A model generated the notes under the pieces. The model did no database searches. It saw nothing but the letters and a program-made list of their open reading frames with translations, and had not been told where the DNA came from. This document shows, in pieces, positions 1 through 63,862 of a DNA stretch of 64,000 bases (within the stretch, counting starts at the first letter, position 1; each line of letters opens with the position of its first letter). The stretch covers positions 186,001 through 250,000 of the forward strand of contig JAFUCA010000006.1 of NCBI GenBank assembly GCA_017459895.1. Reading direction: 5' to 3'. Both the position numbers and the translations under genes were made by a program. Source of the DNA: Bacillota bacterium (lineage in GTDB: Bacteria > Bacillota > Clostridia > Peptostreptococcales > Anaerovoracaceae).

Positions 1-1343
1 AGCAGTCGCAAAACCTGGCTTTGCTGGATGACATCCGGGCGCTGGAATGGATCCAGGAGAACATCGCAGCCTTTGGAGGAGATCCGGGGAATGTTACGAT
101 CTTCGGAAATTCCGCAGGAGCGGCGGACATCACCATCCTGACCACAGCAAACAATGAAAAGATCCAGAAGGGCGAGCTCTTCCAGCGCGTGATCGCGCAG
201 TCCGGCAGCCTGTCCCTGTGCGTACCGGACGATGGTGCCAAGTACACAGCAGAGAGAACCGGTGAGATCGAGCAGTTGATCGAACGCGTCAAAATCCTGG
301 GATACGATGTCAAAAATCTGGACGACCTGATGGCAGTTCCGGAGGAGACGCTGATCCAGGCATACACGCTGTATCCCACCAACAAGGGCAACCTCGTTGA
401 TGTATCCTTCTATGATCCGACGGGTGAGGAATTCATCGCCGGCGCCAGCCTTTGCTATGACAACGTATACACCCCGGTGTTCAACGATGATGCGGGACTC
501 CTGCCCAAGGATCCCTATGATCTGGTGAAAGCCGGTTACGGCAAGAATATCGACGTGCTCTACGGAACCAACCAGAATGAGTGGAACTACTGGATCTGGG
601 AGATGGCGGAATTCGATCCCATGGCAGACCATCCGGTCCCGCTGATGGATGCGGATTATGAGGACTATGCTTTCGGAATGATTCCGCTGCAGAAGATGGC
701 AGGACTGATGGAGGCCATCAAGGATGACGAAGGACTTCAGAAGAACGTTCAGGATTATCTGCAGCTGGAGAGAGTCGCTGGCCTTGAGAATGAATACGTG
801 AAGGAACGGACCGAGGCCGAGTGGAAGGCACTGGTGTCCAGGATCTACATGATGCCGGAAGATGCGGTGACGGAGGATATGATCGCCGGCTTCAAGGCGA
901 ATGAAGCGGATGTCTGGAAGAATACCGAGCTTCAGAACGACCTGGTGTTCCGCGCGCCGGCAGCGAAGGCGGCAGCCGATCACGCAGCGGCAGGCGGCAA
1001 GGGCAAGACCTACATGTACTACTGGGCTAAGGAGACCGATCAGAAATACCAGAAGGCCGGACACGCTTCCGAGATCTCCTATGTGATGGGCAATCCGAAT
1101 CACACCTGCTTCAGCGGAACCGTCGACCCGGCACTGTCGAAGCAGATCCAGGATATGTGGGCAAACTTCGCACGTACCGGTGATCCGAGCACGGAAGATG
1201 TGCAGTGGGTTCCCTATGAGGGCACGAACCGGGCGACAATGACGATCGATCTGGACAATGACGGCGCGTTTAAGACCGTGAACAATCTCTATGACGATCA
1301 GCTTGAGCTCATCCAGCCGCTGCTGAAGTACCACCTGAAGTAG
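1..1343 (+). CDS. type-B carboxylesterase, 5'-truncated by the window edge
   Basis: The alpha/beta-hydrolase esterase frame is open from base 3, so the gene starts upstream and only the C-terminal ~440 residues are visible. The nucleophile elbow GNSAGA (Ser codon 111-113) follows the family's characteristic ENIAAFGGDPGNVT segment. A histidine in KAGHASEISYVMG sits where the catalytic His of type-B carboxylesterases lies. It probably hydrolyses esters; the substrate cannot be told. No signal peptide can be judged because the N terminus is missing. An exact GCAAAGGCTGG-family word lies in the gene at 445-455, read as Ser-Leu-Cys. Family assignment is secure. Confidence 0.9.
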   Translation, partial: QSQNLALLDDIRALEWIQENIAAFGGDPGNVTIFGNSAGAADITILTTANNEKIQKGELFQRVIAQSGSLSLCVPDDGAKYTAERTGEIEQLIERVKILGYDVKNLDDLMAVPEETLIQAYTLYPTNKGNLVDVSFYDPTGEEFIAGASLCYDNVYTPVFNDDAGLLPKDPYDLVKAGYGKNIDVLYGTNQNEWNYWIWEMAEFDPMADHPVPLMDADYEDYAFGMIPLQKMAGLMEAIKDDEGLQKNVQDYLQLERVAGLENEYVKERTEAEWKALVSRIYMMPEDAVTEDMIAGFKANEADVWKNTELQNDLVFRAPAAKAAADHAAAGGKGKTYMYYWAKETDQKYQKAGHASEISYVMGNPNHTCFSGTVDPALSKQIQDMWANFARTGDPSTEDVQWVPYEGTNRATMTIDLDNDGAFKTVNNLYDDQLELIQPLLKYHLK

Positions 1344-1478
1344 GCAGAACCGAATTATTCAGAGGTTTTGATAATAGCACACAGACACAGCCGAAGGCTG
1401 CAGGACAATCCCCCCCTGTGGCCTTTTGGCGTTTGCATTTCCTTCGGACCGTTGGTAAACTTGAGAGGGTGATGGCTT

Positions 1479-2444
1479 ATGATGAACGCGTCTTTTTTCA
1501 TATATCTGTTTGACAGCTGCATCGGGGTGGCGATCGTAGCCCTGCTTCTGCTGATCTTTCGGGTACAGGCGGACCGGGCCGCGTGGAAAGTGCCTCTGAT
1601 GCTCTTTGTCGTGATCACATTCCTGCTGTGTCTGCTGTACTTCGGAGAACGCTTCTATACGGACAACTACGAGACAAAAGGCGGCTGGTCCCTGGGCGTG
1701 AGGACGGTGAATCTGCTGCTGGGCTTCGGCCAGATCTTTGTCTGGTGCTGGTATCTTCGTGCAAAGGCTGGCGTCACTGAGCTTTGGATCCGCCGGGGGA
1801 CCGGCATCGTTCTGATCAGCATCCTCGCGGTTCAGCTGGTGATCTACATTGTCCTGATGGACGAGCACTTTTTCATCGCTTCCGAAGGAATCCGAAGCGC
1901 GGCAACCGGGCTGTATATTCTGTTTATGATCCTTCAGCCGGGGGTCCTGATCGGCTATATGATCCTCGTCCAAAAGAGGGTCGAGGATAAAGAAGCCAGG
2001 ATCTATCTGAACGGGATCGGGGCCGTGCTCACGATAGACTTCCTGTGGGGAAGCTTCTATGTGATCATGCTCTTCCGGGCAAGTCCTTTATTGGAACAGG
2101 GACTTTATGCCGGGTTTGATCTGATATCCCTGACATTCCTGCTGGTCAATGTTCTGGTCGCAGTCTACGTCTACCGCTGTGACATCCGGCGGATGATGCC
2201 GGTCAGCGAAGAGCAGCAGGAGGAGCAGCAGCTGGCCGCCCGGCAGGAAGCCCTGGAGCAGGGAGGACTTTCCCGGCGGGAGGTAGAGGTAGCCCAGCTT
2301 TTGCTCGACGGCAAGAGCTACGACGACATTGCCCAGCTTTTGCATATCTCGAAATACACCGTGAAGCGCCACGCCCATAATATCTATCAGAAGCTGGAGG
2401 TGGGCAATAAGGTGGAACTGATCAACCGGTTCCGGCAGAGCTAG
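1479..2444 (+). CDS. membrane-anchored LuxR-type transcriptional regulator
   Basis: 321 residues. The first ~230 contain about seven hydrophobic helices. The C terminus (about 262-320) is a LuxR/GerE HTH, with LSRREVEVAQLLLDGKSYDD followed by the recognition-helix stretch YTVKRHAHNIYQKL. It is therefore probably a membrane sensor that binds DNA directly, with no separate kinase. ATG codons at 1479 and 1482 are both possible starts behind GAGAGGGTG. It lies between an esterase and a secreted M28 peptidase and resembles the regulator at 5602 in design, so control of the peptidase is a reasonable inference. The signal sensed is unknown. It carries an exact GCAAAGGCTGG word at 1761. Confidence 0.85.
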   Translation: MMNASFFIYLFDSCIGVAIVALLLLIFRVQADRAAWKVPLMLFVVITFLLCLLYFGERFYTDNYETKGGWSLGVRTVNLLLGFGQIFVWCWYLRAKAGVTELWIRRGTGIVLISILAVQLVIYIVLMDEHFFIASEGIRSAATGLYILFMILQPGVLIGYMILVQKRVEDKEARIYLNGIGAVLTIDFLWGSFYVIMLFRASPLLEQGLYAGFDLISLTFLLVNVLVAVYVYRCDIRRMMPVSEEQQEEQQLAARQEALEQGGLSRREVEVAQLLLDGKSYDDIAQLLHISKYTVKRHAHNIYQKLEVGNKVELINRFRQS

Positions 2445-2596
2445 GAATTGCAACGGGTTTCGGCATCGATGGACCATATCGGTCCATGGGTGCCTTTTTG
2501 TTTTTTGGGGAAGCGGAGGATAAATGGACCGGTTTGGGGAATTGGCAGCCGGCGGGAAAACGGGGAAAATGGAGACAAAGAAAGGAGTGGTGTGTA

Positions 2597-5491
2597 ATGA
2601 CAACAATCAAGAAAATCGTTGTCCCGGTGATGATCGTAGCACTGGTCATCGCACTGACCCCGCTGGCCGGGATCGGTGCGGGAAATGTATACGGCGCAGC
2701 GAAGCTGGCGGCACCGGCGAAGGTGACAGCGACCTCAAGCAGCAAGGCGAAGGTCAAGATCACCTGGTCGAAGGTTGCCGGCGCGAAGGGCTACACTGTA
2801 TACAAAAAAGTCGGCAGCAAATTCAAAGCAGTCAAGACCACAAAAGGAAAGAGTTTCACAGACAAGAAGCTCAAGAAAAACAAAACCTACACATATTATG
2901 TAAAGGCCTACAAGGGCAAGAAAAAATACGGGGTGGCATCCATCAAGGTAACGGCCCAGACCAAGGGAAGCAAAAAACAGAATGTTAAGAAACTGACCCT
3001 GGATAAGAACGCGGCGACTCTGTACACGGGTGAGAAGCTCGCGCTCAAGGCAAATCTGAAGCCGGCGAAGAAGCTGGTCTCAAAGAAGGTGACCTGGAAA
3101 TCATCCAACGCGGGAGTAGCCAAGGTTGACGGCAAGGGCACTGTGACAGCGGTCGCGGCCGGATCAGCGACGATCACAGCAACCGCTCATGACGGCGTGA
3201 CGGCGGTCTGCAAGGTAACCGTCAAGACCCATACCCCTAATGAGATTCAGGCGCGGATCATGAAGGAGAATGTCGCCAAACTGGAGAAGGAATCCGATGA
3301 GCCGTTCGCAAAGGAAATGACAAAGACTCTGGCATACGATGAGACGCTGAACGATGTGGATACCTGGTTCCGCGGCGGCGGCAGCAAGGCAGAGCATAAT
3401 ACAGCAGACTACATCGAGGGGGTCTACAAGAGCATCGGTCTGCAGGAGGTCACCAAGACTCCCGTCACAGTCGATGGCTGGGAGACCGGAGAAAGCTATC
3501 TCAGAACCAACGACAGTGCTGAGGTGAAAGTCGATGTAGAGGATATGGTTCCCTACCAGGCAACCGGATCCCACAACCCGGACGGCACGGCAAACGCGGT
3601 GAAGATCCGGGATCTGAGTCAGGGCGAAAGCGGCATGGCGACGGTAACGCTGGACGGTGCGAACTGGGCGGACATGGAGATCGTCAATGTCGGTACCGGC
3701 ACAGCCGCGGATTACGAAGGCGTTGATGTCAAAGGGAAGATCGTTCTGGCTGCGGTCAATCAGTACACAGAGAACTGGATCGACCAGCCCTATACCGAGG
3801 CGTTCTATAACGGCGCGGCTGCGATCGTAACGTATCAGTATCCGGAAGGCGGCATGGGTTATGGCATGTACAACCTGACGGAGGACGGGGGCATCGAGTG
3901 TGACACCATCAACGTTCAGGATATCTGCGCACCGGATCTGATCCCCTGCGGCAGCATCTCGCCGACCGATGCAGCTAACATCATTGCGGCGATGGGAGCA
4001 GGCAACACCCTGTCCCATGTGAATTTCAAGCTGACCTGCAAGGTCACCCCGAATACGGAGGCCTACGTTGTCACCGGCAAGATCCCCGGGAAGAACCACG
4101 ACCAGCGGATCCTGATCGGCGGACACTACGATAAGTATCACGGCGGCGTTAACGATGACTGTACGGCGGTAGCCCTGTCCACAGCCATCGGTAAGGCAAT
4201 GATCGATTCGGACTATAAGCCGCAGAACGATATTTACATCGTTGCCCACTGTGCTGAGGAGTGGGGACTGTCCGGTGCGGCGGACGACTGGGCGATGGGC
4301 TCCTGGGAGATGATCACAGAGGCGCATCCGGAATGGCAGGGATCCACTCTGGCGTTCATCAACTTCGAAATGCCGGCGATCAAATCCGGACAGAAGACCG
4401 GACAGATTCAGACCAGCTATGAGTTCAATACTGCCATCCAGCAGCTGCTGGACGAAAAGGTGGTCAGCGGAAGCTATTATGCAAATGGCGTAGAGGTAGT
4501 CAATGATCACAACATGGGCATGAGCGACTGTATCTCTTATCAGGAGAACGGCGTTCCCTGCATCATCAACAAGCCTGACTTTGATGAACCGAGCATCGAC
4601 AAAGCGGGTGATGTTACAAGCGGCAGCTGGTTCATGGACAGATATCATACCAAATATGACAACGAAGAGACCTATTCTTCTGATCTGATGAAGTATGATA
4701 TCGCCCTGTACGGCAGCATCGCGCAGTTCATCGATATCAATCCGGCTCTGGAACTGGACTTCACCGCAAGATGCGATGAGCTGGAGGCAGAAGCGGAAGG
4801 GCTGGAGGACTTCCTGCCGGAAGATAAGACGGAATTGGCGCAGCACTACAGAGAGAATCTGGCCGTCTTCCGCCAGGCAGCGAAGGAACAGTTTGACAAA
4901 GCGCATAAGCTCAACGAAGCATATGCAAAGGCTGTGGCGGACGGTAAGGATACAGCGGACCTCTACAAGCAGGGCGCGGAACTGAACAAGACGAACCTGC
5001 AGATGTTCCGGGCACTGGAAGACGAAGAGATGGGAATCATCAATTCAGACACCTATATGGCTCTGCACACCACAGCAATCGCCAGCATGGGACCGCTCCA
5101 GGCGGCCCTGGCGGATCTGAAGGAAGGAAAGGTGACCACTGAGCCGATGGAGGACTGCACGCTGGCAACCATTGCGGGGATCAACGGCGGAATGGAATTC
5201 GTGGCCTACAGCTTCAGCAAGTTTACCTATGATGAACTGCAGGCGTCCATTGACTGCGATACAGAGCACATTCAGGACACCTGGGGCTACAACAAGGCGG
5301 TTTCGACAGTAGACCTGTATGAAGCAACCACGGCGATCTTCCCGCAGCTCGAGGAGGAGAACCCGGACTACAGTCAGACCATCGCAGGCTATGAAGCGGC
5401 ATATGAGACTTTCCAGAACGAACTGGTCGAAGTGCTCCTTAAGGAAATCGATGGCTTTGCAAAGGCTTTAATGCCCCTTGTAACGGATTAG
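2597..5491 (+). CDS. secreted M28-family metallopeptidase with FnIII and Big_2 domains
   Basis: 964 residues. The start is the ATG at 2597 behind AAAGGAGTGG; upstream in-frame codons lack a ribosome site and would spoil the signal peptide. Order: signal peptide (~1-37), Lys-rich fibronectin type III domain (~38-125), bacterial Ig-like Big_2 domain (~132-212), then an M28 zinc aminopeptidase with a PA-like insertion. Di-zinc ligands are visible: His510 and Asp in HYD, Asp520 in NDD, the catalytic pair Glu554-Glu555, and a late YHTKYDN. All expected residues are present, so it should be active, probably an exported aminopeptidase for amino-acid fermentation. The last ~200 residues are helical and unassigned. 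No LPxTG anchor is seen. Confidence 0.9.
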   Translation: MTTIKKIVVPVMIVALVIALTPLAGIGAGNVYGAAKLAAPAKVTATSSSKAKVKITWSKVAGAKGYTVYKKVGSKFKAVKTTKGKSFTDKKLKKNKTYTYYVKAYKGKKKYGVASIKVTAQTKGSKKQNVKKLTLDKNAATLYTGEKLALKANLKPAKKLVSKKVTWKSSNAGVAKVDGKGTVTAVAAGSATITATAHDGVTAVCKVTVKTHTPNEIQARIMKENVAKLEKESDEPFAKEMTKTLAYDETLNDVDTWFRGGGSKAEHNTADYIEGVYKSIGLQEVTKTPVTVDGWETGESYLRTNDSAEVKVDVEDMVPYQATGSHNPDGTANAVKIRDLSQGESGMATVTLDGANWADMEIVNVGTGTAADYEGVDVKGKIVLAAVNQYTENWIDQPYTEAFYNGAAAIVTYQYPEGGMGYGMYNLTEDGGIECDTINVQDICAPDLIPCGSISPTDAANIIAAMGAGNTLSHVNFKLTCKVTPNTEAYVVTGKIPGKNHDQRILIGGHYDKYHGGVNDDCTAVALSTAIGKAMIDSDYKPQNDIYIVAHCAEEWGLSGAADDWAMGSWEMITEAHPEWQGSTLAFINFEMPAIKSGQKTGQIQTSYEFNTAIQQLLDEKVVSGSYYANGVEVVNDHNMGMSDCISYQENGVPCIINKPDFDEPSIDKAGDVTSGSWFMDRYHTKYDNEETYSSDLMKYDIALYGSIAQFIDINPALELDFTARCDELEAEAEGLEDFLPEDKTELAQHYRENLAVFRQAAKEQFDKAHKLNEAYAKAVADGKDTADLYKQGAELNKTNLQMFRALEDEEMGIINSDTYMALHTTAIASMGPLQAALADLKEGKVTTEPMEDCTLATIAGINGGMEFVAYSFSKFTYDELQASIDCDTEHIQDTWGYNKAVSTVDLYEATTAIFPQLEEENPDYSQTIAGYEAAYETFQNELVEVLLKEIDGFAKALMPLVTD

Positions 5492-5601: not shown

Positions 5602-6585
5602 ATGCTATACAAGTCGGTCTTTTTTGGCTACATTGCCGCGGCGGTTGCCGTGGTGGCGGCCCTGGTGCTGATCCTGCTGATGCGGTATCAGGACAGGCAA
5701 TACGAACGGGGGAAACTGATTCCGCTGACCGGAGCTCTGGTCGGCTCGGTTTGCATGAACACGATGTACTTCCTCTCGTTTTTTGGCAGTCTTACCAGCC
5801 TGACCAGCCGGTACCAGCCGGTGGAACGGGGTCTGGACATTCTGTCCAGCTTCGTGATCAACCTGTTTTTGTTTCTGTTTTTTTATCATGCGGCGAAGGA
5901 ATCGGACCGATCCTCCGGAGCGGCGGAGAAGCTTTACCGGCCGGCTCTGGCTGTGCTGATCGCCGGATTTGCCTTCGCGGGGATCGTCTACGTGGGCTTC
6001 GTGACCGATGAATATCGGGTGGCATCCGGCCATCTGGTGCTGGCAGAGACAGGGCAGATCGTTCTGACGGCAGTGATCTGTCTGGTGACCGCAGTCTACG
6101 GATGGCTGGCCTTCCGCAGCGGCTGCGGGCCGGTTCGTCAGATCGCGGCGCTGGCCGGCATCAACGTGATCACGGCCATCTACAACTGCGCGGGATCCAT
6201 AGTGCTGTTCCGCAATCACTCCAGCTATCTGAACTGGTCCGGACCCAGGGATCTGAATACGTGGCTGTTCGTGCTCAGCGATATACTGCTGCTGCTGATC
6301 GCGGTCTGGTATTTCCGGAGACAGGCGGACGCGCCAGCCTTTGCAGAAGGGGACGCGCCAGCCTTTGCATCGGCAGACGTTCCGGCCATCCCCGCCTCTC
6401 TTGGGCTGACCCCGCGGGAAACCGAGATCGCCCAGCGGATCCTGCGGCGGCAGACCTGCCGGGAGATCGCCGAGGAGCTGACGATCTCCGAGCACACCGT
6501 CAAGCGTCACGTCCACAACATCTATGAAAAGGCTGGAGTTTCCCGCCGGGACGAGCTGATCCGGATGCTAAAGGATCAGGACTAA
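5602..6585 (+). CDS. membrane-anchored LuxR-type transcriptional regulator (paralogous design)
   Basis: 327 residues with about seven hydrophobic segments (~1-235), a short Ala/Pro linker, and a C-terminal LuxR HTH (about 268-325) containing LTPRETEIAQRILRRQ and EHTVKRHVHNIYEKAG. It has the same architecture as the regulator at 1479, and the two bracket the M28 peptidase. The linker holds two copies of the window's 11-mer 24 bp apart (6334 and 6358), read as PAFA in DAPAFAEGDAPAFA, so the linker is a tandem duplication around that word. ATG at 5602 is preceded by AGGTAAGAAG. Target genes are unknown. Confidence 0.85.
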   Translation: MLYKSVFFGYIAAAVAVVAALVLILLMRYQDRQYERGKLIPLTGALVGSVCMNTMYFLSFFGSLTSLTSRYQPVERGLDILSSFVINLFLFLFFYHAAKESDRSSGAAEKLYRPALAVLIAGFAFAGIVYVGFVTDEYRVASGHLVLAETGQIVLTAVICLVTAVYGWLAFRSGCGPVRQIAALAGINVITAIYNCAGSIVLFRNHSSYLNWSGPRDLNTWLFVLSDILLLLIAVWYFRRQADAPAFAEGDAPAFASADVPAIPASLGLTPRETEIAQRILRRQTCREIAEELTISEHTVKRHVHNIYEKAGVSRRDELIRMLKDQD

Positions 6586-7139: not shown

Positions 7140-8468
7140 ATGAAACAAAGGACCCCGGCATCGGCCGTCATACTGTACATTTTCGCTTTTATTTTCCTGG
7201 CGATTTCCGCGTATACGCTGTATACCGCCATCGGTTTTCAGAAACTGTATCTGGAATCGCTGGAGGTGTCTTTCAATGAAATGGCGCAGAACGTCGTGCT
7301 TTACGTGATCGAGAAATTCATCCCGTATTTCGGGATCGCGGTGATTACGTTCGGAGTGGGCAAGGCCATCAGCGTTGCGGCGAAGAGCAAGGCCATTGCC
7401 ATTGCTGCGGAGGAGAGCCGGGAGGGCTTCGACGATCAGTCTCCGGTGGCGATCAAGCTGGAGGAGCTGCGGCGCGTGAACGGCATCCGTCTGGAGGAGA
7501 TGGAGCGCCGCGAGAAGGTTCGGCTCGAGGAGACCAGAGAGATGATCCTGAACGATCTGGAGCTGTACCGGGCGCAGCGTGAGGAGGCGGAGAATATTCT
7601 TCTGCAAAAGCTGGCGACCCTTGAGGCAAGAACGGCGCGGGGAGCGTTTGCGGAGATTGATGATACGGAGGAACCGGTGAAGGAAATCGCAGCGGAAGAA
7701 CCGGCGGAAGAACCCGCATTGGAAGAACCGGCGGAAGAGCCAGCAGAAGAAGCGGCTGAAGAAACCGCAGAAGAAGCGGTTGAAGATGCTGCGGTAGAGG
7801 AGCCCGAAGCAGAAGAGGCAGTAGAAGAAGAACCGACGGAGGAACCGGAGGTTGAGGAGCCGACTGCCGAGGAGCCGGAAGCGGAAGAAGCGACAGAGGA
7901 AGAACCGGCCGAAGAAACCGCGCCGGAGGAACCGGCGGATGAGGAACCGGCGGCTGAGGGTGATATAGAAGAAGCAATCGAAGAGGCGGCAGAGGAGGAA
8001 CCGACCGAGGAGTCCGAGGCAGACGAAGCCGTTGAGGCTGAGGAAGAGCCCACCGAAGAGTTTCCGGTAGAAGAACCGGCCGAAGAGCCGGCGGAAGCTC
8101 CGGCAGATGAACCAGCGCCGGAGGGCGAAGAGGAGCCGGCACCGGAGGCCGAAGAAGAGGCGGCGCCCGAAGAGCCCGCGTATGAAGACCCCGAAGAATC
8201 TGAAGCCGAAGGGCCCGAAGCCGAGGAACCGGCCCCGGAAGAAGCCGAGGAACCCGAAGAAAAAGACCCCTGGGAAGAGCTGAGAGAGGGCTTTACCAGT
8301 GATCCGGAGGAGCCGGAGAAGACCGAGGAAATCGAGCCGGCCGAGGAAGCGGCCGAGCCGGCTGAGCCGGAGCAGGCGGAGTGGGATGCCAGGAAAGAAG
8401 GCGTGAAGATCATCGAGCCGGCCCGGCAGCAGAAGAACAAGAAGAAAAAAAGGAAAGGGCGCAGATAA
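7140..8468 (+). CDS. two-helix membrane protein with a long Glu/Pro/Ala low-complexity domain
   Basis: 442 residues, not recognised as a named family. Two N-terminal hydrophobic helices (~8-32 and ~55-80) are followed by a charged, probably coiled-coil segment (~85-170). Then come about 240 residues of repeated EEPAEEPA-type sequence and a basic tail (KNKKKKRKGRR). The acidic tract is encoded by GAA/GAG, GCG and CCG codons, which leaves the opposite strand free of stops over ~1.1 kb. ATG 7140 follows AAGGAG. Its stop is 3 bp before the thioesterase start, so they are probably co-transcribed. The acidic region may be a disordered spacer or polyvalent binding segment; that is inference. Confidence 0.7.
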   Translation: MKQRTPASAVILYIFAFIFLAISAYTLYTAIGFQKLYLESLEVSFNEMAQNVVLYVIEKFIPYFGIAVITFGVGKAISVAAKSKAIAIAAEESREGFDDQSPVAIKLEELRRVNGIRLEEMERREKVRLEETREMILNDLELYRAQREEAENILLQKLATLEARTARGAFAEIDDTEEPVKEIAAEEPAEEPALEEPAEEPAEEAAEETAEEAVEDAAVEEPEAEEAVEEEPTEEPEVEEPTAEEPEAEEATEEEPAEETAPEEPADEEPAAEGDIEEAIEEAAEEEPTEESEADEAVEAEEEPTEEFPVEEPAEEPAEAPADEPAPEGEEEPAPEAEEEAAPEEPAYEDPEESEAEGPEAEEPAPEEAEEPEEKDPWEELREGFTSDPEEPEKTEEIEPAEEAAEPAEPEQAEWDARKEGVKIIEPARQQKNKKKKRKGRR

Positions 8469-11025: not shown

Positions 11026-11046
11026 AAAGGCTGGACCAGCCTTTGC
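11026..11046. repeat. inverted pair of the 11-mer between ywlC and rpiB
   Basis: AAAGGCTGG (11026-11034), one A, then exact CCAGCCTTTGC (11036-11046). It starts on the base after the ywlC stop codon. It could form a hairpin, but the T-run of an intrinsic terminator is missing and rpiB's ribosome site follows at once. Confidence 0.85.
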
Positions 11047-11496: not shown

Positions 11497-11562
11497 AAGG
11501 CCAGCCTTTGCATAATAATGAGTCAATAATGTAAATTTTAATACAAAGAAAGGAAGGAAGAC

Positions 11563-45914: not shown

Positions 45915-46123
45915 CTTCGAGTTTTCGGGAGGTTGAGGCAGGTCAGATCTCGAAAACCTCTCCTGCAAAGGCTGGCGGTTGGCTTCGGTCAGAGATCTCG
46001 ATGCATTGAATCGCCTGAAATCTCGAACGACAGCCAGCCTGAGGCGTGAATGTCGACTGCTACTCTGTGATAGGGAAGGCTTATTCGAGATTCGGGCCTT
46101 CCCGGATGTGCGGGATCTCGAAT
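45915..46123. repeat. inverted-arm array E (ATTCGAGAT family, 3 units)
   Basis: Arms of 9 bp around exactly 23 variable bases. Best unit 46083-46123: ATTCGAGAT-N23-ATCTCGAAT. Two weaker units at 45915-45955 and 45988-46028 keep the same 41-bp length, and the latter two starts are 73 bp apart. An exact copy of the 11-mer lies between the first two units (45965-45975). The 316-bp gap has no visible gene. Confidence 0.75.
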
Positions 46124-55793: not shown

Positions 55794-56906
55794 TTACAGA
55801 TAATCCATACGGATTTCCTTCTGATATTTCCCGAAGGCGGAAGGGATCGAGTAAACATCGCTGAGCTGGCGGGCATCCGCCAGAAACAGCTCGTGCTCCC
55901 GGGGGCTGCCTTCCGCGAAAGGCTCCCATTCGTCTGCGAGGATCTGCCATCCCGTCATGTGCCATTCCCGGTGAGAGAAAATGTGCTTCGCCGCCGGGAG
56001 CTTCTGCAGCCGCAGGGCAGTGAATCCCAGATCCCGGGCAAACCGGACGGCCTCGTCCCGGTCCAGCGTCCCGGGGGCATTGGGGAACTCATAGAGTCCG
56101 GCGAGCAGACCGTGCTCCGGCCGCTTCCGCAGCGCCAGCTTCTGATTATAGTAAATGAGGAAGACCGTCTTCTCTTCGATCAAACGACGTTTCTTCGCCG
56201 GCACGACCGGAAGCTCCTGCTCCAGGCCGCAGCTTCGGGCGGTGCAGAGCTCTGCCCAGGGGCACTCGCCGCACAGGGGAGCGCCGGCCGGGAGACAGAT
56301 ACATGCTCCCAGATCCATCAGCGCCTGATTCATATCGCCGCAGCGGCTCTCGGGGAAGATCGTCAGATAGTATTCTCTCGCGGCGGATTTCGCTGCGTCC
56401 GCTTTGATGCTCCCGTCGTATCCGGTCATGCGGGCGAAGACCCGCAGCAGATTTCCGTCCACAGCGGGGATGCGCGCATCATAACAGATCGAGGCAATGG
56501 CGGAAGCTGTGTAGGGGCCGATGCCGGCCAGCTTCAGGAGCGCCTCGTAGGTACGGGGCATCCGGCCGCCGTGCTCCGCCAGGATCTGGTTCGCGGCCTT
56601 GTGCAGATTCCGGACGCGGCTGTAATAGCCGAGTCCCTCCCACAGCTTCAGATACACGTCCTCATCAGCCTTTGCGAGAGACTCGATGGTCGGCAGCGCC
56701 GCAAGGAACCGGGTGTAGTAGTCCCGGACGGCCTCGACCCGCGTCTGCTGGAGCATGATCTCTGACAGCCAGACGTGGTATGGGGTCGGGTCCTCCCGCC
56801 AGGGCAGGATCCGCCGGTTCGCGTCGTACCATCGGAGAAGCCGTTCGGCAGGAGATTCTGTGACGGGGGAAGTACCTGTGTTTTTCTCATTCGAATCGTT
56901 TTTCAT
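55794..56906 (-). CDS. mutY: A/G-specific adenine glycosylase
   Basis: 370 residues from ATG 56906. HhH-GPD glycosylase: WLSEIMLQQTRVEAV with the catalytic Glu, LAGIGPYTASAIAS with HhH, and the catalytic Asp in IPAVDGNLLRV. The FeS cluster cysteines are in CICLPAGAPLCGECPWAELC. A NUDIX-like C-terminal domain follows. It removes A opposite 8-oxoG. A one-mismatch 11-mer at 56665. The intergenic space upstream carries 29-bp iterons. Confidence 0.95.
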   Translation of the reverse strand: MKNDSNEKNTGTSPVTESPAERLLRWYDANRRILPWREDPTPYHVWLSEIMLQQTRVEAVRDYYTRFLAALPTIESLAKADEDVYLKLWEGLGYYSRVRNLHKAANQILAEHGGRMPRTYEALLKLAGIGPYTASAIASICYDARIPAVDGNLLRVFARMTGYDGSIKADAAKSAAREYYLTIFPESRCGDMNQALMDLGACICLPAGAPLCGECPWAELCTARSCGLEQELPVVPAKKRRLIEEKTVFLIYYNQKLALRKRPEHGLLAGLYEFPNAPGTLDRDEAVRFARDLGFTALRLQKLPAAKHIFSHREWHMTGWQILADEWEPFAEGSPREHELFLADARQLSDVYSIPSAFGKYQKEIRMDYL

Positions 56907-57019: not shown

Positions 57020-58105
57020 AAGATGAAGAATGAAATAAACCCATACACACCAGCCTTTGGGACACCGCCGACAGCATATATTCATCGGGAACAGATCGAA
57101 AACCAGATCATGAATGAATTCTGCGGGCCCGGCTCAGTCCCCATGTCATATATGATCATCGGAGCGAGAGGGACAGGCAAGACCGTGCTCATGCATGAGA
57201 TTGCGAATCGTTTCGAGACATCCGCCGACTGGGTCGTGGCAAGAATGAATCCGAACGTGGATATGCTGGACTCGCTGCTCCATAAACTGGCGGGACATAA
57301 GAAAGCAGCTCCCGCGATAAAGTCGGCGAAGATCAACCTTGCGTTCTTCGGTCTGACCGTGGATTTCTCAACTCCGCAGATCAAAGATGTGGAAGAAGCG
57401 ATCGCCGAAATCGTCAAAGGATTAAGGGATAATGAAAAACGCCTTCTGATCATCGTAGATGAAGCGACCAATACGGCATCGATGAAGAAATTCGCCAGCG
57501 CGTATCAGAATCTGATCGGGCAGAAGCTTCCGGTGTATCTTCTCATGACGGGACTTTATGAGAACATCAGCCGATTAAAAAACGAAAAGAACCTGACATT
57601 TCTGTACCGCATGCCGCGAATCCTTCTGTCACCCCTCAGCCTGAACCGGATCAGGGAGAACTACATGAACACATTGGAAGTTGATGTGGCGGCGGCAGAA
57701 ATGATGGCCGACATAACAAAAGGATATTCCTATGGGTTTCAGCTGCTGGGGAAACTGACCTGGGACAACCGGGGAGAGTATACGGAGATCCTGGAGACGT
57801 ACCGAAGCACTCTGTATGAAATGGTCTACGAGAAAATATGGGAAGAGATGAGCGATACCGATAAGTATGTCATGTTCTGCGCGGCGACCACAGAAGGGAC
57901 GAGGGTGACAGATATCAGAAAGGCCGCCGGCCAAAACACGAATCTGTTTTCGACCTATAAGGACCGGTTGATCAAGAAGGGATTGCTGCACAGCAGCAGA
58001 TACGGACACGTGGAGATAGCGCTGCCCTTTTTCAAGGGGTTCATTCTGCAGCGTTATGAAGGCAGACGCCTGGCAAGATCTGAGGATCTGCCGGATGATC
58101 TATAA
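57017..58105 (+). CDS. AAA_16/ORC-like ATPase with C-terminal winged helix
   Basis: 362 residues (ATG 57017 or 57023; no strong ribosome site). Walker A IIGARGTGKTVLMHEIA (~51-67), Walker B LLIIVDEATN, sensor-like VYLLMTGLYENI, and a C-terminal winged helix (TDIRKAAGQNTNLFSTYKDRLIKKGLL). This architecture resembles ORC/Cdc6-like or STAND ATPases of mobile elements and of unknown prokaryotic loci. It may bind the 29-bp iterons in its own promoter. A one-mismatch 11-mer at 57050. A racemase follows 23 bp downstream. Confidence 0.8.
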   Translation: MKMKNEINPYTPAFGTPPTAYIHREQIENQIMNEFCGPGSVPMSYMIIGARGTGKTVLMHEIANRFETSADWVVARMNPNVDMLDSLLHKLAGHKKAAPAIKSAKINLAFFGLTVDFSTPQIKDVEEAIAEIVKGLRDNEKRLLIIVDEATNTASMKKFASAYQNLIGQKLPVYLLMTGLYENISRLKNEKNLTFLYRMPRILLSPLSLNRIRENYMNTLEVDVAAAEMMADITKGYSYGFQLLGKLTWDNRGEYTEILETYRSTLYEMVYEKIWEEMSDTDKYVMFCAATTEGTRVTDIRKAAGQNTNLFSTYKDRLIKKGLLHSSRYGHVEIALPFFKGFILQRYEGRRLARSEDLPDDL

Positions 58106-58127: not shown

Positions 58128-59213
58128 ATGTACCCAAAGCTTTTGATCGACATCAACAAACTGAGAGAGAACATCGATGCAGTCGCGAAAATCACGAAGG
58201 ATGACGGCGGCTGCAGCATGATGATCGTCACGAAGTGTCTTTGCGCGGACCGCAGGGTCGCCGAGATGATCACGGCCCATCCGAGGGTGGACTATCTGGC
58301 TGATTCGCGTATCGCCAATATACGATCCTATCAGGATCTGGTGGAGAAAAACGGCAAGCAGAGCGTGCTGCTGCGGCTGCCCCAGATGAGCGAGATCGAG
58401 GAGGTCGTCCGGTACGCGGACATCAGCTTCAATTCGGAGATGACCACCATCCGGGCGCTGAATGAAGAGGCCGGCCGGCAGGGCAAGGTCCATAAGGTCG
58501 TGCTGATGGTGGATCTGGGAGATCTGCGGGAAGGCATCTTCTTCGAAAACGAAGAGGAAATCCTGCAGACGGCGGAGGCGATCCACGCCATGGAGAATGT
58601 GGAGCTGTACGGCATGGGAACCAACCTGACCTGCTACGGCGCCATTATCCCGAAGAACGACAATCTCTCCGTGCTCTGCGACATCGCCGGCAAGGTCGAG
58701 CAAAGGCTGGGCATTGAGCTTTCGATGATCTCGGGCGGCAACTCCAGTTCGATCTACCTGGTGGGGAAGGGCGAGCTTCCGGAGAAGATCAGCAACCTGC
58801 GTCTGGGGGAGAGCTTCCTGCTGGGAAACGACACGGCCTATGGCAGCCGACTGCCGGGAACGGTGAACGACGGGCTGCTGTGTGAAGCCCAGATCGTCGA
58901 GCTGAAGACGAAACCGTCCCTGCCCATCGGCGAGGTCGGCGTGGATGCCTTCGGACAGAAACCGTTTTATGAAGACCGGGGACGGATCCGCCGGGCGATC
59001 CTGGCCATCGGTCAGCAGGACACGGATCGGGACGGCATGCATCCCCTCGATGAGAAGGTGGATGTGCTGGGCGCCAGCTCCGACCATCTGATCCTGGATG
59101 TGACGAAGTCGGACAGAGAATATCAGATCGGTGATACGGTCCGGTTCACGCTGGATTACGGCGCGGTGCTGCGTCTCGCCACCAGCCCCTATGTGGAGAG
59201 GGAATTCATCTGA
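58128..59213 (+). CDS. alanine/ornithine-racemase-family PLP enzyme
   Basis: 361 residues from ATG 58128 behind AAGGAGGAGG. The N-terminal barrel shows LLIDINKLRENIDAV and the PLP-Lys in MMIVTKCLCAD. The family includes ornithine racemase of Clostridium and YhfX. With the putrescine/ornithine-type aminotransferase in the window, an ornithine or related racemase role is reasonable but not proven. An exact 11-mer (58700) is read as QRL. Confidence 0.82.
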   Translation: MYPKLLIDINKLRENIDAVAKITKDDGGCSMMIVTKCLCADRRVAEMITAHPRVDYLADSRIANIRSYQDLVEKNGKQSVLLRLPQMSEIEEVVRYADISFNSEMTTIRALNEEAGRQGKVHKVVLMVDLGDLREGIFFENEEEILQTAEAIHAMENVELYGMGTNLTCYGAIIPKNDNLSVLCDIAGKVEQRLGIELSMISGGNSSSIYLVGKGELPEKISNLRLGESFLLGNDTAYGSRLPGTVNDGLLCEAQIVELKTKPSLPIGEVGVDAFGQKPFYEDRGRIRRAILAIGQQDTDRDGMHPLDEKVDVLGASSDHLILDVTKSDREYQIGDTVRFTLDYGAVLRLATSPYVEREFI

Positions 59214-59911: not shown

Positions 59912-60868
59912 CTATTTGAAATAATCCAGGATCCCGAGGATCGAATTCTCCACCATGTCCGAAACGGCTTCCTTCGTATAGAACGCCATGTGGGGCGTGG
60001 TGATCACGTTCGGGTGGGAATTGAGGATGGCCAGCTGCGGGTTGTTCAGCGGCTCGCCCATCCGGTTGTAATAGTACATTCCGTATTCGTTCTCCACGGT
60101 GTCCAGGCAGGCGAAGCCCAGGCGGCTGCTCTCGATGGCGTCGATCATCGCCTCGGAATCCACCAGCGGTCCTCTGGCGCAGTTAACCAGACCGGCGCCC
60201 GGCTTCATTTTCGCAAAGGCTGCGGCGTCGATCATATGATAATTCTCTTCGAGACCCGGAGCATGCAGGGTGATGACATCGCTTTCCCGCAGCAGGGTAT
60301 CCAGATCCGTGTATTCCACGACATCGCTCAGTTCAGCCTTTGGGAAAGGATCACAGGCCAGCATACGGCAGCCGAAGCCGGTCAGTTCCCGGGCCACGCA
60401 TGCGCCGATCCGTCCGGTACCCACGATGCCGACGGTCAGATTGCCCAGCTCGCAGGCCAGTTTGCCCTCCAGGGTGTAGTCCTGCACCTCGGCCCGCAGG
60501 CGGATGTATTTGAGCTTGCGGATGCCCAGCAGGATCATCATGACGGTGTAGTCGGCGACGGTGGCCGGGGAATAGGTGATGTTCAGCACGCCGATTCCCT
60601 TTTCCCGGGCGTAGTTATAGTCGATGTGATCGTAACCGATGGTCCGGGTGGCGATGCAGCGGATCCCCATCTCACAGTACTTATCGATCATGGCCTTATC
60701 CACCGGTGCGGTCAGAATGTTGATCGCATCGCAGCCGGCAGCCAGATCGGCGTTCTCCAGCGTTGGTTTCTCCCCGCAGGAGTCGAATTCGATATTGTAT
60801 TTTTTGCCGAAGGTGTCGAAGTAGACCCGTTCGTCGTATTCCCGCAGTCCGTAGACAAACATTTTCAT
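59912..60868 (-). CDS. D-isomer-specific 2-hydroxyacid dehydrogenase (D-lactate type)
   Basis: 318 residues. NAD-binding motif GIVGTGRIGACVARELTGFG, the active-site Arg in NCARGPLVD, Glu in DTVENEYG, and His in PHMAFYT. The N-terminal part has TRTIGYDHIDY as in D-lactate/VanH-type enzymes. Start ATG-AAA-ATG follows AAGGTGG. It could make D-lactate or reduce another 2-oxoacid. Two one- or two-mismatch 11-mers lie inside (60213, 60333). Confidence 0.92.
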   Translation of the reverse strand: MKMFVYGLREYDERVYFDTFGKKYNIEFDSCGEKPTLENADLAAGCDAINILTAPVDKAMIDKYCEMGIRCIATRTIGYDHIDYNYAREKGIGVLNITYSPATVADYTVMMILLGIRKLKYIRLRAEVQDYTLEGKLACELGNLTVGIVGTGRIGACVARELTGFGCRMLACDPFPKAELSDVVEYTDLDTLLRESDVITLHAPGLEENYHMIDAAAFAKMKPGAGLVNCARGPLVDSEAMIDAIESSRLGFACLDTVENEYGMYYYNRMGEPLNNPQLAILNSHPNVITTPHMAFYTKEAVSDMVENSILGILDYFK

Positions 60869-60953: not shown

Positions 60954-61796
60954 ATGAGAGAATTGGATGTCAGAGAGATTACGGAGGCGGTTGCCAGCCT
61001 TTGCGTGAAGGCGAACCACCATCTCGAGGGGAGCACGAAGGCCTGCATCGCCCGGTTCGCTGCGGAGGAGCCGTGGGCTCCTGCAAAGGCTGTGCTGGAC
61101 ATTATCGAAGAGAACATCGCGATCGCGGAGGAAGGGGAATTTCCCCTCTGCCAGGATACGGGGATGGCCTGTGTGTTCATCGACTTGGGCCAGGAGGTGC
61201 ACCTTACCGGCGGGCTCCTGGAAGATGCGGTGAATGAAGGCGTGCGCCGGGGCTACGGAGAAGGATATCTCCGAAAGTCCATCGTGGCGGATCCGCTGCG
61301 CCGGGAAAACACCGGGGACAACACACCGGCGGATCTGGTGGTGCGGCTTACCGCCGGCGACCGGGTGAAGATCACGGTGGCGCCGAAGGGCTTCGGCTCA
61401 GAGAACATGAGTCAGATCCGGATGCTCCCGCCGTCGGCCGGAGCACAGGGGGTCGAGGATTTCGTGGTTTCGGTATGCGAGGCCGCAGGAGCCAATCCCT
61501 GTCCGCCCATCGTGGTGGGCGTCGGCATCGGAGGCAATTTCAATAAGGCAGCCCTGCTGGCCAAACGGGCGCTGCTGCAGCCTTTGGACGAGGACAATCC
61601 GGATCCGTATTACGCCGAGATGGAGCACCGGCTTCTGGAGCGGATCAACGGACTGGGGATCGGGCCCCAGGGCTTCGGCGGCCGCACCACTGCGCTGAAG
61701 GTGAACATCCTCAGTGCTCCCACGCATATCGCGGGGCTGCCGGTGGCGGTGAACATCAACTGCCACGTGAGCCGGCACGCGGAAGTGGTGGTGTGA
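60954..61796 (+). CDS. fumarate hydratase class I, alpha subunit (TtdA-like)
   Basis: 280 residues, the normal length for the separate N-terminal subunit of iron-sulfur hydro-lyases. LCQDTGMACVFIDLGQ holds the first FeS cysteine; KGFGSENMSQIRMLPPS, CPPIVVGVGIGGNF and VAVNINCHVSRH follow. With the beta subunit it interconverts fumarate and malate (tartrate dehydratase is the alternative). An exact 11-mer (60994) and near-copies (61083, 61577) lie in it. Unusually, the beta subunit starts 331 bp later. Confidence 0.93.
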   Translation: MRELDVREITEAVASLCVKANHHLEGSTKACIARFAAEEPWAPAKAVLDIIEENIAIAEEGEFPLCQDTGMACVFIDLGQEVHLTGGLLEDAVNEGVRRGYGEGYLRKSIVADPLRRENTGDNTPADLVVRLTAGDRVKITVAPKGFGSENMSQIRMLPPSAGAQGVEDFVVSVCEAAGANPCPPIVVGVGIGGNFNKAALLAKRALLQPLDEDNPDPYYAEMEHRLLERINGLGIGPQGFGGRTTALKVNILSAPTHIAGLPVAVNINCHVSRHAEVVV

Positions 61797-62700: not shown

Positions 62701-63473
62701 GCTACAGTGAATTTATCAAGGAAATGAAAATGGACGGCAGGCTGATCGCCATCACCAGAGTCCACAAAGAAGATGCAGAGCTGACGGACACCTTCGGATG
62801 CATTTACCGCACCCTGCGAAAGGTGCTGGCGGGGGAGACCTTCACCTTCGCTCTGGACAACTGCAGCTGTTCCGGCTTCGATCACAACACCGGGCTGAGG
62901 GATGATATGCCCAACACACCGGGGGGATTCGGAGTGTTCCTGTCCTATGGATCGGATCAGCAGTGGACGCCGCCGGGGGAGAAGTTCAAATGCGATCCCG
63001 AAACGGCGGAGGCTATGTGGGGATGCCTTCCGAAGGATGTGATGACGTCATCGGAGGAGGTGTTCGATGCCCTGCGGTTTGAGCCGTACCGGGAGGGGCT
63101 GCATCCCGACATCGTAGTCGCCTTCTGCAATCCCGACCAGCTGTCTGCGATGATCGTGCTCCACGGATACGATAAGCCGGAGTACGACCGGGTGATCGCG
63201 TCCACTGTTTCCGGCTGCGCCTCCATGGTGCGGATTCCATTGAATGAGCTGAAGAGCGATAAGCCCAGGGCGGTGATCACCGGGACTGATCTGGCCGCCC
63301 GCAAGTTCGTCCCCGAAGGGGAGCTGGCCTTTGCGGTCACCGGGCCGGAGTTCGATAAGATGCTGAGCGTCACGGAGGAGTGCTTCTTCCATTCACCGGT
63401 CTGGAAGCCGGTCCGTAACCGTTTGCGGGCGGAGGAGCATCTGGAGGATGCGAAGTTCACCCGGCTGGCTTAA
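62697..63473 (+). CDS. DUF169 family protein
   Basis: 258 residues. DUF169 landmarks: a Cys-rich NCSCSGFDHNTGL, GGFGVFLSYG, PDIVVAFCNPDQLSAMI, STVSGCASMVRIPL, and the C-terminal SVTEECFFHSPVWKPVR. Function is unknown; the conserved Cys residues suggest metal or redox binding. It is translationally coupled to the fumarase beta gene by an ATGA overlap, which is notable. The 11-mer begins on the base after its stop codon. Confidence 0.88.
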   Translation: MSYSEFIKEMKMDGRLIAITRVHKEDAELTDTFGCIYRTLRKVLAGETFTFALDNCSCSGFDHNTGLRDDMPNTPGGFGVFLSYGSDQQWTPPGEKFKCDPETAEAMWGCLPKDVMTSSEEVFDALRFEPYREGLHPDIVVAFCNPDQLSAMIVLHGYDKPEYDRVIASTVSGCASMVRIPLNELKSDKPRAVITGTDLAARKFVPEGELAFAVTGPEFDKMLSVTEECFFHSPVWKPVRNRLRAEEHLEDAKFTRLA

Positions 63474-63491
63474 GCAAAGGCTGGAGTTGTG

Positions 63492-63741
63492 TTGCAGATT
63501 GATCGAGGGTTAGGGAAGAATCTGCAAATAACCGGCTGCAAGCCATTGATTTTAGAGACGGATAGAGCTGAAATTGCAGATTTGATATCCGTATATCCGA
63601 ATCTGCAACAAAGGAGCATGAATGATTGCAGATTTAACAGTAACGAATTCGAATCTGCAATTCAGCCATAAATTATCCCTGATCAGAGGCTTTACGGAGG
63701 TCGGGATTGCAGATTTGATGTATCTTAATTCAGATCTGCAA
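63492..63741. repeat. inverted-arm array D (TTGCAGATT family, 4 units)
   Basis: TTGCAGATT-N17-AATCTGCAA units at 63492-63527 (N18), 63574-63608, 63626-63660 and 63707-63741 (one G-T arm pair). Gaps between units are 46, 17 and 46 bp; the middle gap equals the inner spacing. The array is bracketed by exact 11-mers at 63474 and 63768. The 389-bp gap has no visible gene. Confidence 0.88.
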
Positions 63742-63862
63742 CAGAGCAATACCGGAAGAGCTCTGGGCCAGCCTTTGCATGGCCTCTTGTGAAAAGCCGC
63801 AGGCGGGTGTAGAATGATGGGGCGGCGGGGCCGCAATATGCATAAAGGACGAGGTAAGAAAT

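What the first reader, a model, noticed from the sequence alone, without database searches (positions are those of the whole stretch)
445..63778. 11-mer GCAAAGGCTGG is hugely over-represented, in all contexts
My hand scan finds 21 exact copies on either strand (plus-strand form at 1761, 9078, 13321, 24685, 41991, 45965, 51532, 58700, 63474; complement at 445, 6334, 6358, 11036, 11501, 13750, 24789, 31401, 42003, 53089, 60994, 63768), plus about 15 with one mismatch. Chance would give about 0.04 exact copies in 64 kb. In genes it is read as AKAG, QRL, PAFA or SLC, so it is kept at DNA level rather than as a peptide. 7 of 21 are intergenic, often next to stop codons. The two orientations are nearly balanced. 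This is how DNA-uptake sequences of Neisseria and Pasteurellaceae behave; I know of no such signal described for Clostridia.
Basis: partly seen in the sequence, partly recalled or inferred. Interest (0 to 1): 0.93.

Follow-up and report, generated by a model that had tools for sequence, protein, structure and literature searches.

The report
Self-DNA tag words in gut Clostridia
A Clostridia draft genome is sprinkled with about 600 copies of one 11-letter DNA word, related species carry differently spelt versions, and the spelling goes with the version of a pilus-type operon, which is what one would expect if these bacteria recognise and take up their own DNA as Neisseria and Haemophilus do.

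Summary
The draft genome holds 601 copies, 300 on one strand and 301 on the other, against 3 for the reversed word. In a 21% sample the word shows no replication-strand bias (81:78), is randomly spaced, is read in many frames and is two-fold enriched between genes. It is kept at 13 of 21 aligned sites in a sister species, where other 11-mers are kept at 14.7%. Beyond the finding: congeners spell it differently. Five of 49 genomes hold GCAAARGCTGG in bulk, about half are rich in GCAAARGCA, and one has both. A pilus-type operon goes with the spelling: among the 29 genomes where it was found, the four with our version (81-100% identical; the rest 26-42%) are exactly those rich in GCAAARGCTGG. One close relative has the other version and the other word. 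ComEC and DprA are present. Best reading: an independent DNA-uptake-sequence system with dialects in a Clostridia genus. Uptake itself is untested.

The parts
445..455 (-). exact word GCAAAGGCTGG, in gene, antisense
1761..1771 (+). exact word, in gene, sense
6334..6344 (-). exact word, in gene, antisense
   Evidence: kept in G011
6358..6368 (-). exact word, in gene, antisense
   Evidence: not kept in G011
9078..9088 (+). exact word inside the release factor 1 (prfA) gene
   Evidence: kept in G011, absent in G001 and in the GCAAARGCA species aligned
11036..11046 (-). exact word, intergenic, inverted pair with an imperfect copy (2 mismatches) at 11024
   Evidence: kept in G011 and G010 while its flanks differ
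11501..11511 (-). exact word, intergenic
13321..13331 (+). exact word inside the tyrosyl-tRNA synthetase gene
   Evidence: kept in G001, altered in G010
13750..13760 (-). exact word, in gene, antisense
24685..24695 (+). exact word, in gene, sense
24789..24799 (-). exact word, in gene, antisense
31401..31411 (-). exact word, in gene, sense
41991..42001 (+). exact word, intergenic, left arm of an inverted pair
   Evidence: hairpin -17.1 kcal/mol, z -2.51
42003..42013 (-). exact word, intergenic, right arm of the inverted pair
45965..45975 (+). exact word, intergenic
51532..51542 (+). exact word, in gene, sense
53089..53099 (-). exact word, in gene, sense
58700..58710 (+). exact word, in gene, sense
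60994..61004 (-). exact word, in gene, antisense
63474..63484 (+). exact word, intergenic, starts right after a stop codon
63768..63778 (-). exact word, intergenic
2294..2304 (-). one-mismatch copy GCAAAAGCTGG
2333..2343 (-). one-mismatch copy GCAAAAGCTGG
4925..4935 (+). one-mismatch copy GCAAAGGCTGT
6526..6536 (+). one-mismatch copy GAAAAGGCTGG
7604..7614 (+). one-mismatch copy GCAAAAGCTGG
20943..20953 (+). one-mismatch copy GCAAAGGCTGC
21058..21068 (-). one-mismatch copy GCAAAGACTGG
29215..29225 (-). one-mismatch copy GCAAAAGCTGG
30316..30326 (+). one-mismatch copy GCAAAGGCAGG
32676..32686 (-). one-mismatch copy GCAAAGGCTGT
32812..32822 (+). one-mismatch copy GCAAAAGCTGG
34561..34571 (+). 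one-mismatch copy GCAAAGGCTGA
40352..40362 (+). one-mismatch copy GCAAAGGCTGA
45722..45732 (-). one-mismatch copy GCAAAGGCTGA
46662..46672 (+). one-mismatch copy GCAAAGGCTGT
54037..54047 (+). one-mismatch copy GTAAAGGCTGG
56665..56675 (-). one-mismatch copy GCAAAGGCTGA
57050..57060 (-). one-mismatch copy CCAAAGGCTGG
60213..60223 (+). one-mismatch copy GCAAAGGCTGC
61083..61093 (+). one-mismatch copy GCAAAGGCTGT

Best explanation
GCAAAGGCTGG is the DNA-uptake sequence of this species. A small type IV pilus-like machine (T2SSF platform protein, four short membrane-anchored pilin-like proteins, a PilT-family ATPase) captures DNA outside the cell. One of the pilin-like proteins prefers DNA that carries the word, retraction pulls it in, ComEC passes one strand into the cytoplasm, and DprA with RecA recombines it into the chromosome. 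Because fragments with the word are taken up more often, copies accumulate at random places in both orientations (molecular drive). When the pilus operon changes, the preferred spelling changes with it, which gives dialects: GCAAARGCTGG for operon class I, mainly GCAAARGCA for class II. Shown here: the word statistics, the dialects, the presence of the operon, ComEC and DprA, and the match between operon class and dialect. Inferred: that the operon makes a DNA-uptake pilus, that a pilin-like protein reads the word, and that these cells transform at all. The part of RecA is general knowledge, not tested.
For: 601 copies against 3 for control. Sharp specificity: in 458,544 bases, 141 exact copies; each change at the AAA, at the C in position 8 and at the G in position 10 is seen 0 or 1 times, while G6 to A occurs 36 times and the last base varies freely. 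Flanks carry only weak preferences (T just before; C at the 6th and 7th bases after), so it is not a longer repeat. No replication-strand bias, 81:78, in a genome with strong GC skew; exponential spacing (KS p = 0.97); 43 of 159 copies intergenic against 14.0% of positions, p = 1.7e-5; 6 of 9 close inverted pairs intergenic. 13 of 21 aligned words kept in G011 against 14.7% of composition-matched 11-mers, p = 9e-7. Dialects: GCAAARGCA at 5-fold or more over control in 26 of 49 congeners (ratios by hand); GCAAARGCTGG in bulk (334-762 copies) in 5 of 49, the next being 43. T2SSF of operon class I (81-100% identity) in 4 of the 29 genomes with a hit, exactly the 4 of those 29 that are rich in GCAAARGCTGG; class II (40-42%) in 10, with GCAAARGCA at 5-fold or more in 9 and 3.4-fold in G013. 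G003 has proteins with a median identity of 89% to ours (10 pairs) against 74% for G001 (33 pairs), yet G003 has class II and GCAAARGCA, while G001 has class I and our word. PilT-family match 411 bits over a cut-off of 319. ComEC in 40 of 49 and DprA in 45 of 49 genomes, both including ours.
Against: No uptake or binding experiment. The operon's only ATPase is PilT-like, with no extension ATPase beside it, and only one pilin-like protein reaches a family cut-off, a domain of unknown function (DUF4860); the ComGG likeness of another is far below its cut-off. 20 of 49 genomes show no T2SSF hit, among them 9 of the 26 rich in GCAAARGCA, and the dual-dialect G068 is one of these nine; this may be assembly gaps or a blind search. 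Class III (26-32% at best) is mixed: 8 of 15 genomes at 5-fold or more, 7 below. Within class II, G013 and G018 follow the core with A less often (14 of 28 sites; 3 of 10), so one class is not one fixed spelling. ComEC and DprA do not track the word: they are found in word-poor congeners such as G023 and G022, and no ComEC was found in G010, one of the four class I genomes. Words are not rarer in genes of atypical codon usage (0.334 per kb in the least typical quartile, 0.149 in the most typical), so the expected depletion in foreign DNA was not seen. G001 also carries a 4.3-fold excess of GCAAARGCA. ComEA was not searched for.
Confidence: 0.72

Rival explanations
1. A recombination-control site of Chi type, which stops an AddAB/RecBCD-like nuclease.
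For: Species-specific, non-palindromic, over-represented, in genes and between them. Slight sense bias in genes, 69:47, p = 0.05.
Against: No bias to the leading strand (81:78) although GC skew and gene direction are strongly polarised in most blocks. An 11-mer with enriched near-copies is longer than the Chi sites I recall, which are 5-8 bases and oriented. Dialect goes with a pilus operon.
Confidence: 0.06
2. A binding site for a chromosome-organising or segregation protein (KOPS, MatS, ParB or SMC type).
For: Wide distribution, random spacing.
Against: Not palindromic, not polar, and no confinement to a domain in the 518,544 bases examined; spelling differs between species of one genus and goes with a pilus operon variant.
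Confidence: 0.07
3. A small dispersed repeat or mobile element (REP, MITE).
For: Many copies, some as inverted pairs.
Against: Conservation stops at about 11-12 bases and flanks are unrelated. At coding sites where an aligned relative lacks the word, the relative mostly shows substitutions, not an empty site; two intergenic sites show gaps in some relatives.
Confidence: 0.02
4. A by-product of codon or peptide use (the peptide AKAG, or codon bias).
For: AKAG in sense frame 0 is the commonest single reading, 36 of 116 coding copies.
Against: 39 peptide/frame readings on both strands; two-fold enrichment outside genes; 200-fold excess over the reversed word.
Confidence: 0.01
5. An uptake-type tag, but read by something other than this operon (for example a Tad-type pilus, a ComEA-like receptor or a surface nuclease); the operon association is then shared descent.
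For: The four class I genomes are relatives. A second T2SSE ATPase of about 400 residues (CpaF-like by my reading) is present in G000 and many congeners. ComEA was not examined. Nine word-rich drafts lack a T2SSF hit.
Against: G003 breaks simple descent. The split in T2SSF and pilin-like proteins between G000 and G003 (28-46%) lies below all 10 other protein pairs compared in G003; against G004 and G008 it is less of an outlier, with 5 of 13 and 3 of 12 other pairs as low, some of them probably not orthologues.
Confidence: 0.12

Closest known systems
DNA uptake sequence (DUS) of Neisseriaceae, with ComP receptor
   Same: Short word in hundreds to thousands of copies, in and between genes, inverted pairs between genes, dialects with a shared core among species, one genome with two dialects (Simonsiella muelleri there, G068 here), type IV pilus-class machine (PMC3630211 abstract and the DUS dialects section; PMC3868556 abstract; PMC1852404 and PMC5031613 passages).
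   Different: No sequence likeness (GCCGTCTGAA against GCAAAGGCTGG). Host is Clostridia in the order of Mogibacterium. Fewer copies (601 against 943 to 5918 in the genomes listed in that section). The one pair checked with a terminator scan has no T-run. Dialect goes with a change of a whole pilus operon rather than a known single pilin. No uptake experiment.
Uptake signal sequence (USS) of Pasteurellaceae, ComN/PpdA proposed as receptor
   Same: Genome-wide word, two spellings in the family, inner core fixed, extended flanking preferences, minor pilin proposed as reader (PMC12616744, passages).
   Different: Unrelated word (AAGTGCGGT or ACAAGCGGT); Gram-negative host; different set of pilin genes.
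Chi sites (recalled)
   Same: Short non-palindromic species-specific word.
   Different: No leading-strand bias here; longer; dialect linked to a pilus operon.
ComG competence pilus of Bacillus and Streptococcus (recalled)
   Same: T2SSF protein (match to the ComGB model at 124 bits, below its cut-off of 240), short pilin-like proteins, secretion ATPase, ComEC, DprA.
   Different: The ATPase is of the PilT family, with the ComGA model below its cut-off, and I know of no uptake word there (recalled). A passage of a 2025 review says bacteria generally recognise DNA from any source and names Neisseria as an exception (PMC12236230).

Membership tests
DNA uptake sequence system (in the broad sense) | short word far above chance genome-wide | tested here: met
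   601 against 3
DNA uptake sequence system (in the broad sense) | both orientations, no replication polarity | tested here: met
   81:78 relative to local leading strand in 518,544 bases
DNA uptake sequence system (in the broad sense) | found in genes in several frames and enriched between genes | tested here: met
   116 coding, 43 intergenic of 159; 39 peptide/frame readings
DNA uptake sequence system (in the broad sense) | closely spaced inverted pairs acting as terminators | tested here: inconclusive
   6 of 9 close inverted pairs intergenic; three folded as hairpins, z -2.51, -0.72 and -2.82; none of the 6 terminator-like sites in 40000-46000 is the 41991/42003 pair
DNA uptake sequence system (in the broad sense) | dialects with a common core in related species | tested here: met
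   GCAAARGC core, tails TGG or A, perhaps C in G032
DNA uptake sequence system (in the broad sense) | competence machinery in the genome | tested here: met
   ComEC, DprA, PilT-family/T2SSF/pilin-like operon in G000; ComEA not tested
DNA uptake sequence system (in the broad sense) | pilin receptor that reads the word | not testable with these tools
   candidates are the four pilin-like proteins at L189:9138-10816
DNA uptake sequence system (in the broad sense) | word raises DNA uptake or transformation | not testable with these tools
   needs a bench test
DNA uptake sequence system (in the broad sense) | under-represented in the accessory genome (as stated for DUS in a passage of PMC5031613) | tested here: not met
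   density is not lower in genes of atypical codon use; a rough proxy, mobile regions were not mapped
Neisseriaceae DUS or Pasteurellaceae USS proper | the same word or core (CTG in GCCGTCTGAA; GCGG in AAGTGCGGT) | tested here: not met
   compared by eye with the words printed in passages of PMC1852404, PMC5031613 and PMC12616744; the trinucleotide CTG does occur in GCAAAGGCTGG, but not in the GCAAARGCA dialect
Chi site | orientation bias with replication | tested here: not met
   81:78, p = 0.87

The most novel reading that the evidence does not exclude
A third, independently evolved DNA-uptake-sequence system, the first in Clostridia, in which the spelling preferred by a species is set by which version of a compact pilus operon it carries. 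Replacement of the operon would switch the dialect, rewrite hundreds of genomic words over time, and so split one genus into separate gene-exchange groups; G068, with both words on the same contigs, would be a lineage caught in mid-switch.
Probability: 0.5. Interest if true: 0.95.

Novelty: new variant of a known kind. Interest (0 to 1): 0.9.

Why it matters
In the passages I could read, uptake words are described in two Gram-negative families, Neisseriaceae and Pasteurellaceae. A further, unrelated case in Clostridia, with dialects, would give independent evidence on how such words arise, would show that self-recognition of DNA does not need an outer membrane (that these hosts have a single membrane is recalled, not tested), and makes the idea that the pilus operon decides the dialect directly testable. 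It may also explain which gut species exchange genes with which, and suggests a way to transform intractable Clostridia of this genus in the laboratory: add the right word to the DNA.

Tried and rejected
Chi/KOPS role: rejected on strand balance. Mobile repeat: rejected on unrelated flanks. Peptide origin: rejected. Sites of the other dialect at the places of our words: looked for at the four words in window 8300-13700 against 12 relatives; none of the GCAAARGCA species has a core there, and their sites lie elsewhere. Depletion in atypical genes: tested, not seen. Enriched words in congeners poor in both forms (G023, G022, G031, G070, G063, G065, G024, G019, G061, G067, G072, G034, G009), from 20-60 kb each: nothing convincing; GCAAAGGGCA in G023 (5 against 0.25 expected) and GCAAAATCGC in G063 (5 against 0.28) were not followed up. 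G017 shows little enrichment in its two stretches although its whole-genome count is high. A tree of prfA plus Sua5 (56 of 57 entries, G010 left out as too short) puts G001 with G012 rather than with G000, at odds with TyrS and the operon, so no clean species tree was obtained and the link between operon and dialect is not corrected for descent. Literature searches: the letters of the word (13 papers in the listing, none on such a signal by title); DNA uptake sequence with Negativicutes (0), with natural transformation, Firmicutes and overrepresented (0), with Clostridia (3, passages of two read), with metagenome-assembled genomes (1, listing only); DNA uptake sequences with general terms and Acidaminococcus (12 in the listing); uptake signal sequence with Firmicutes and overrepresented (0), with dialect, minor pilin and Gram-positive (10 in the listing); UBA1191 with competence (0). 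This library lacks preprints and most subscription journals.

Full report
What was checked. The window is bases 186,001-250,000 of contig 34 of a draft genome of 2,495,951 bases in 55 contigs, in which the word occurs 601 times, 300 forward and 301 reverse, against 3 for the word read backwards. In 458,544 bases of this genome, the word and its shifted forms head the lists of over-represented k-mers from 8 to 12 bases.

Form of the word. In that sample there are 141 exact copies. One-mismatch forms show which bases matter: each change at the AAA, at the C in position 8 and at the G in position 10 is seen 0 or 1 times, G to A at position 6 is common (36), and the first and last bases vary. Around the AAAGGCTG core, T precedes the word in 61% of sites, and C is favoured at the 6th and 7th bases after it (55% and 45%); otherwise flanks are close to random. 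A usable consensus is T-GCAAARGCTG-G.

Placement. In 518,544 bases (seven blocks, my own simple gene caller, not a standard one) 159 copies divide into 69 sense, 47 antisense and 43 intergenic. Intergenic copies are 27% against 14.0% of positions (p = 1.7e-5). Relative to the local leading strand, judged by GC skew or by gene direction, orientation is 81:78 (p = 0.87). Spacing is exponential (mean 3.1 kb, KS p = 0.97), though counts per 20 kb vary more than Poisson (variance/mean 1.85). Nine close inverted pairs were found (one arm exact, the other with at most 2 mismatches, starts at most 40 bases apart), 6 of them intergenic. Three such pairs fold with z-scores of -2.51, -0.72 and -2.82, but none of the 6 terminator-like sites in 40000-46000 is the pair at 41991/42003.

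Conservation. Aligning the fetched parts of sister genome G011 to ours, 13 of 21 words are unchanged, against 14.7% of 1,242 composition-matched 11-mers (p = 9e-7). Against the other carriers the figures are 1 of 8 (G001) and 1 of 4 (G010), and 1 of 6 against GCAAARGCA species, numbers too small to differ from the 6-12% background. So words are held between close species; that they turn over between more distant ones rests on few sites.

Who the hosts are. A genome-collection scan with the neighbouring Sua5 protein gave as nearest named relatives a MAG from goat jejunum, UBA1191, S12M_St_6, a MAG from horse faeces, other MAGs and Clostridiales strain 16, then Family XIII, Sinanaerobacter and Mogibacterium. 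Five unnamed congeners are identical in the compared prfA and Sua5 proteins to named MAGs: G007 to UBA1191, G066 to Horse_feces275, G029 to S12M_St_6, G032 to RGIG2522, G027 to SUG1236. I therefore take the genus to be that of UBA1191. That these are single-membraned Clostridia is recalled.

Dialects. In 61 genomes only four hold the exact word in bulk: G000 601, G001 311, G010 308, G011 337; all others have at most 29 (which did not include G061-G072). Enriched words in fetched stretches of G004, G008, G007 and G003 are (T)GCAAARGCA forms. Across 49 congeners GCAAARGCA is at 5-fold or more over its reversed control in 26, G024 among them with only 93 copies (ratios worked out by hand). That control contains CpG and so runs low in AT-rich genomes. 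The base after GCAAARGC: TG in 207 of 260 sites in G000; A in 37 of 52 in G004, 40 of 56 in G008, 13 of 15 in G003 and 20 of 21 in G066; A in only 14 of 28 in G013 and 3 of 10 in G018; C in 21 of 43 in G032, which may be a third form. GCAAARGCTGG is in bulk in G000 762, G001 435, G010 408, G011 440 and G068 334; the next is G012 with 43. G068 has 549 GCAAARGCA too, and both forms occur on each of four contigs sampled, so it looks truly dual, although that draft has 7% contamination. G001 has a lesser second signal, GCAAARGCA at 173 against 40. Over 393 genomes of the order at 70% completeness or more, GCAAARGC exceeds 420 per Mb in 17 of the 26 members of this genus and in none of the 367 others, whose highest is about 400 (densities by hand from rounded genome sizes).

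Machinery. ComEC is found in 40 of 49 genomes and DprA in 45 of 49, both including ours. They do not track the word: word-poor congeners such as G022 and G023 have both, and no ComEC was found in G010, a 79% complete draft. A T2SSE search led to an operon at G000 C34:332,062-336,891 (L189:7062-11891): transglutaminase-like lipoprotein, T2SSF, four short proteins with a hydrophobic N-terminus, and an ATPase. The ATPase matches the PilT family at 411 bits over a cut-off of 319; the second short protein carries DUF4860 at 35.4 bits over a cut-off of 25. The same gene order is called in full in G001, G011, G004 and G003, and with some genes not called in G008, G014 and G018. By eye, proteins like the neighbouring response-regulator/EAL, Hpt and GGDEF proteins of G000 also lie near the operon of G004, so the locus is probably the same one.

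Operon version goes with dialect. The T2SSF protein of G000 finds a match in 29 of 49 genomes. G000, G011, G010 and G001 (81-100%) form class I; ten genomes at 40-42% form class II; the other fifteen, at 26-32% for their best match, form class III. Mean identity is 85% within class I and 81% within class II, 41% between them, and 28% and 25% from these to class III (with 4, 9 and 12 of the 4, 10 and 15 members). Among the 29, class I is exactly the four rich in GCAAARGCTGG; the fifth bulk carrier, G068, has no T2SSF match. By hand, the chance of that match among 29 is 1 in 23,751 if genomes were independent, which they are not. Nine of ten class II genomes have GCAAARGCA at 5-fold or more and the tenth, G013, at 3.4-fold; class III has 8 of 15 at 5-fold or more; and 9 of the 26 rich genomes have no T2SSF match. 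G003 is the informative case: its other proteins are close to ours (median 89%, 10 pairs; G001 74%, 33 pairs), but its T2SSF is 40% and its pilin-like proteins 28-46% identical to ours, and its word is GCAAARGCA. The ten G003 pairs come from three stretches, one chosen because it matched the window and one for the operon. Against G004 and G008 the operon is less of an outlier: 5 of 13 and 3 of 12 other pairs are as low as T2SSF. The link thus does not simply reduce to overall relatedness, but the sample is small. G010 has a second, class II-like operon on a 3-kb contig carrying two GCAAARGCA and no GCAAARGCTG sites, which I take for contamination.

Interpretation. The word has the statistics of an uptake sequence, lacks those of Chi, KOPS or a mobile repeat, exists in dialects with a fixed core, and its spelling goes with a pilus-class operon in genomes that keep ComEC and DprA. 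The steps shown are the sequence facts; the steps inferred are DNA capture by this pilus, reading of the word by a pilin-like protein, and transformation. Against it stand the missing T2SSF in some word-rich drafts, the mixed class III, the looser spelling in G013 and G018, the lack of depletion in atypical genes, and the absence of any experiment.

Known relatives. Neisseriaceae have eight dialects with a CTG core, and one species with two (PMC3630211, abstract and the dialects section). ComP reads the Neisseria word and a ComP from another species transfers its preference (PMC3868556, abstract). A minor pilin is proposed for Pasteurellaceae (PMC12616744, passages). A review says that the two known kinds are not homologous, suggesting convergence (PMC5031613, passages). 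Uptake words often form terminator hairpins in both families (PMC1852404, passages). I found no paper on such words in Clostridia in the searches.

Noticed in passing
window 28640-28817, 30742-30824, 51139-51326: Clustered hairpins built from AACTCTGCCA ... TGGCAGAGTT, mostly some 60-75 bases apart, between genes. Genome-wide 83 copies, mostly in clusters, against 4 for the reversed word (sequence). No Rfam family there.
   Followed up: partly
G000 stretches L009-L028 and window: A second over-represented word, AATTGTCACG (19 against 0.77 expected in the 458,544-base sample), not examined.
   Followed up: no
G001 contig C32 (L216): Mosaic contig: TyrS 97% identical to G000 while Sua5 on the same contig is 74%, which suggests recombination between species or a chimeric assembly.
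   Followed up: partly
G068 (L349-L352): Both dialects on each of four contigs sampled; by prfA and Sua5 it sits beside G011. Possible dialect switch in progress, or contamination.
   Followed up: partly
G032 (L043, L044, L344): After the GCAAARGC core, C is the commonest next base (21 of 43 sites): a possible third dialect. No T2SSF match found in this draft.
   Followed up: partly
G000 contig C14 and C34:335848: Two PilT-type hits with the same score and frame length on different contigs suggest that the 9-kb contig C14 duplicates part of C34 in this draft.
   Followed up: no
G003 C3, G035 C24, G063 C49, G009 C135: These congeners also carry a long PilB-like ATPase (563-657 residues) with a PilT-length ATPase beside it, as in a fuller type IV pilus.
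   Followed up: no
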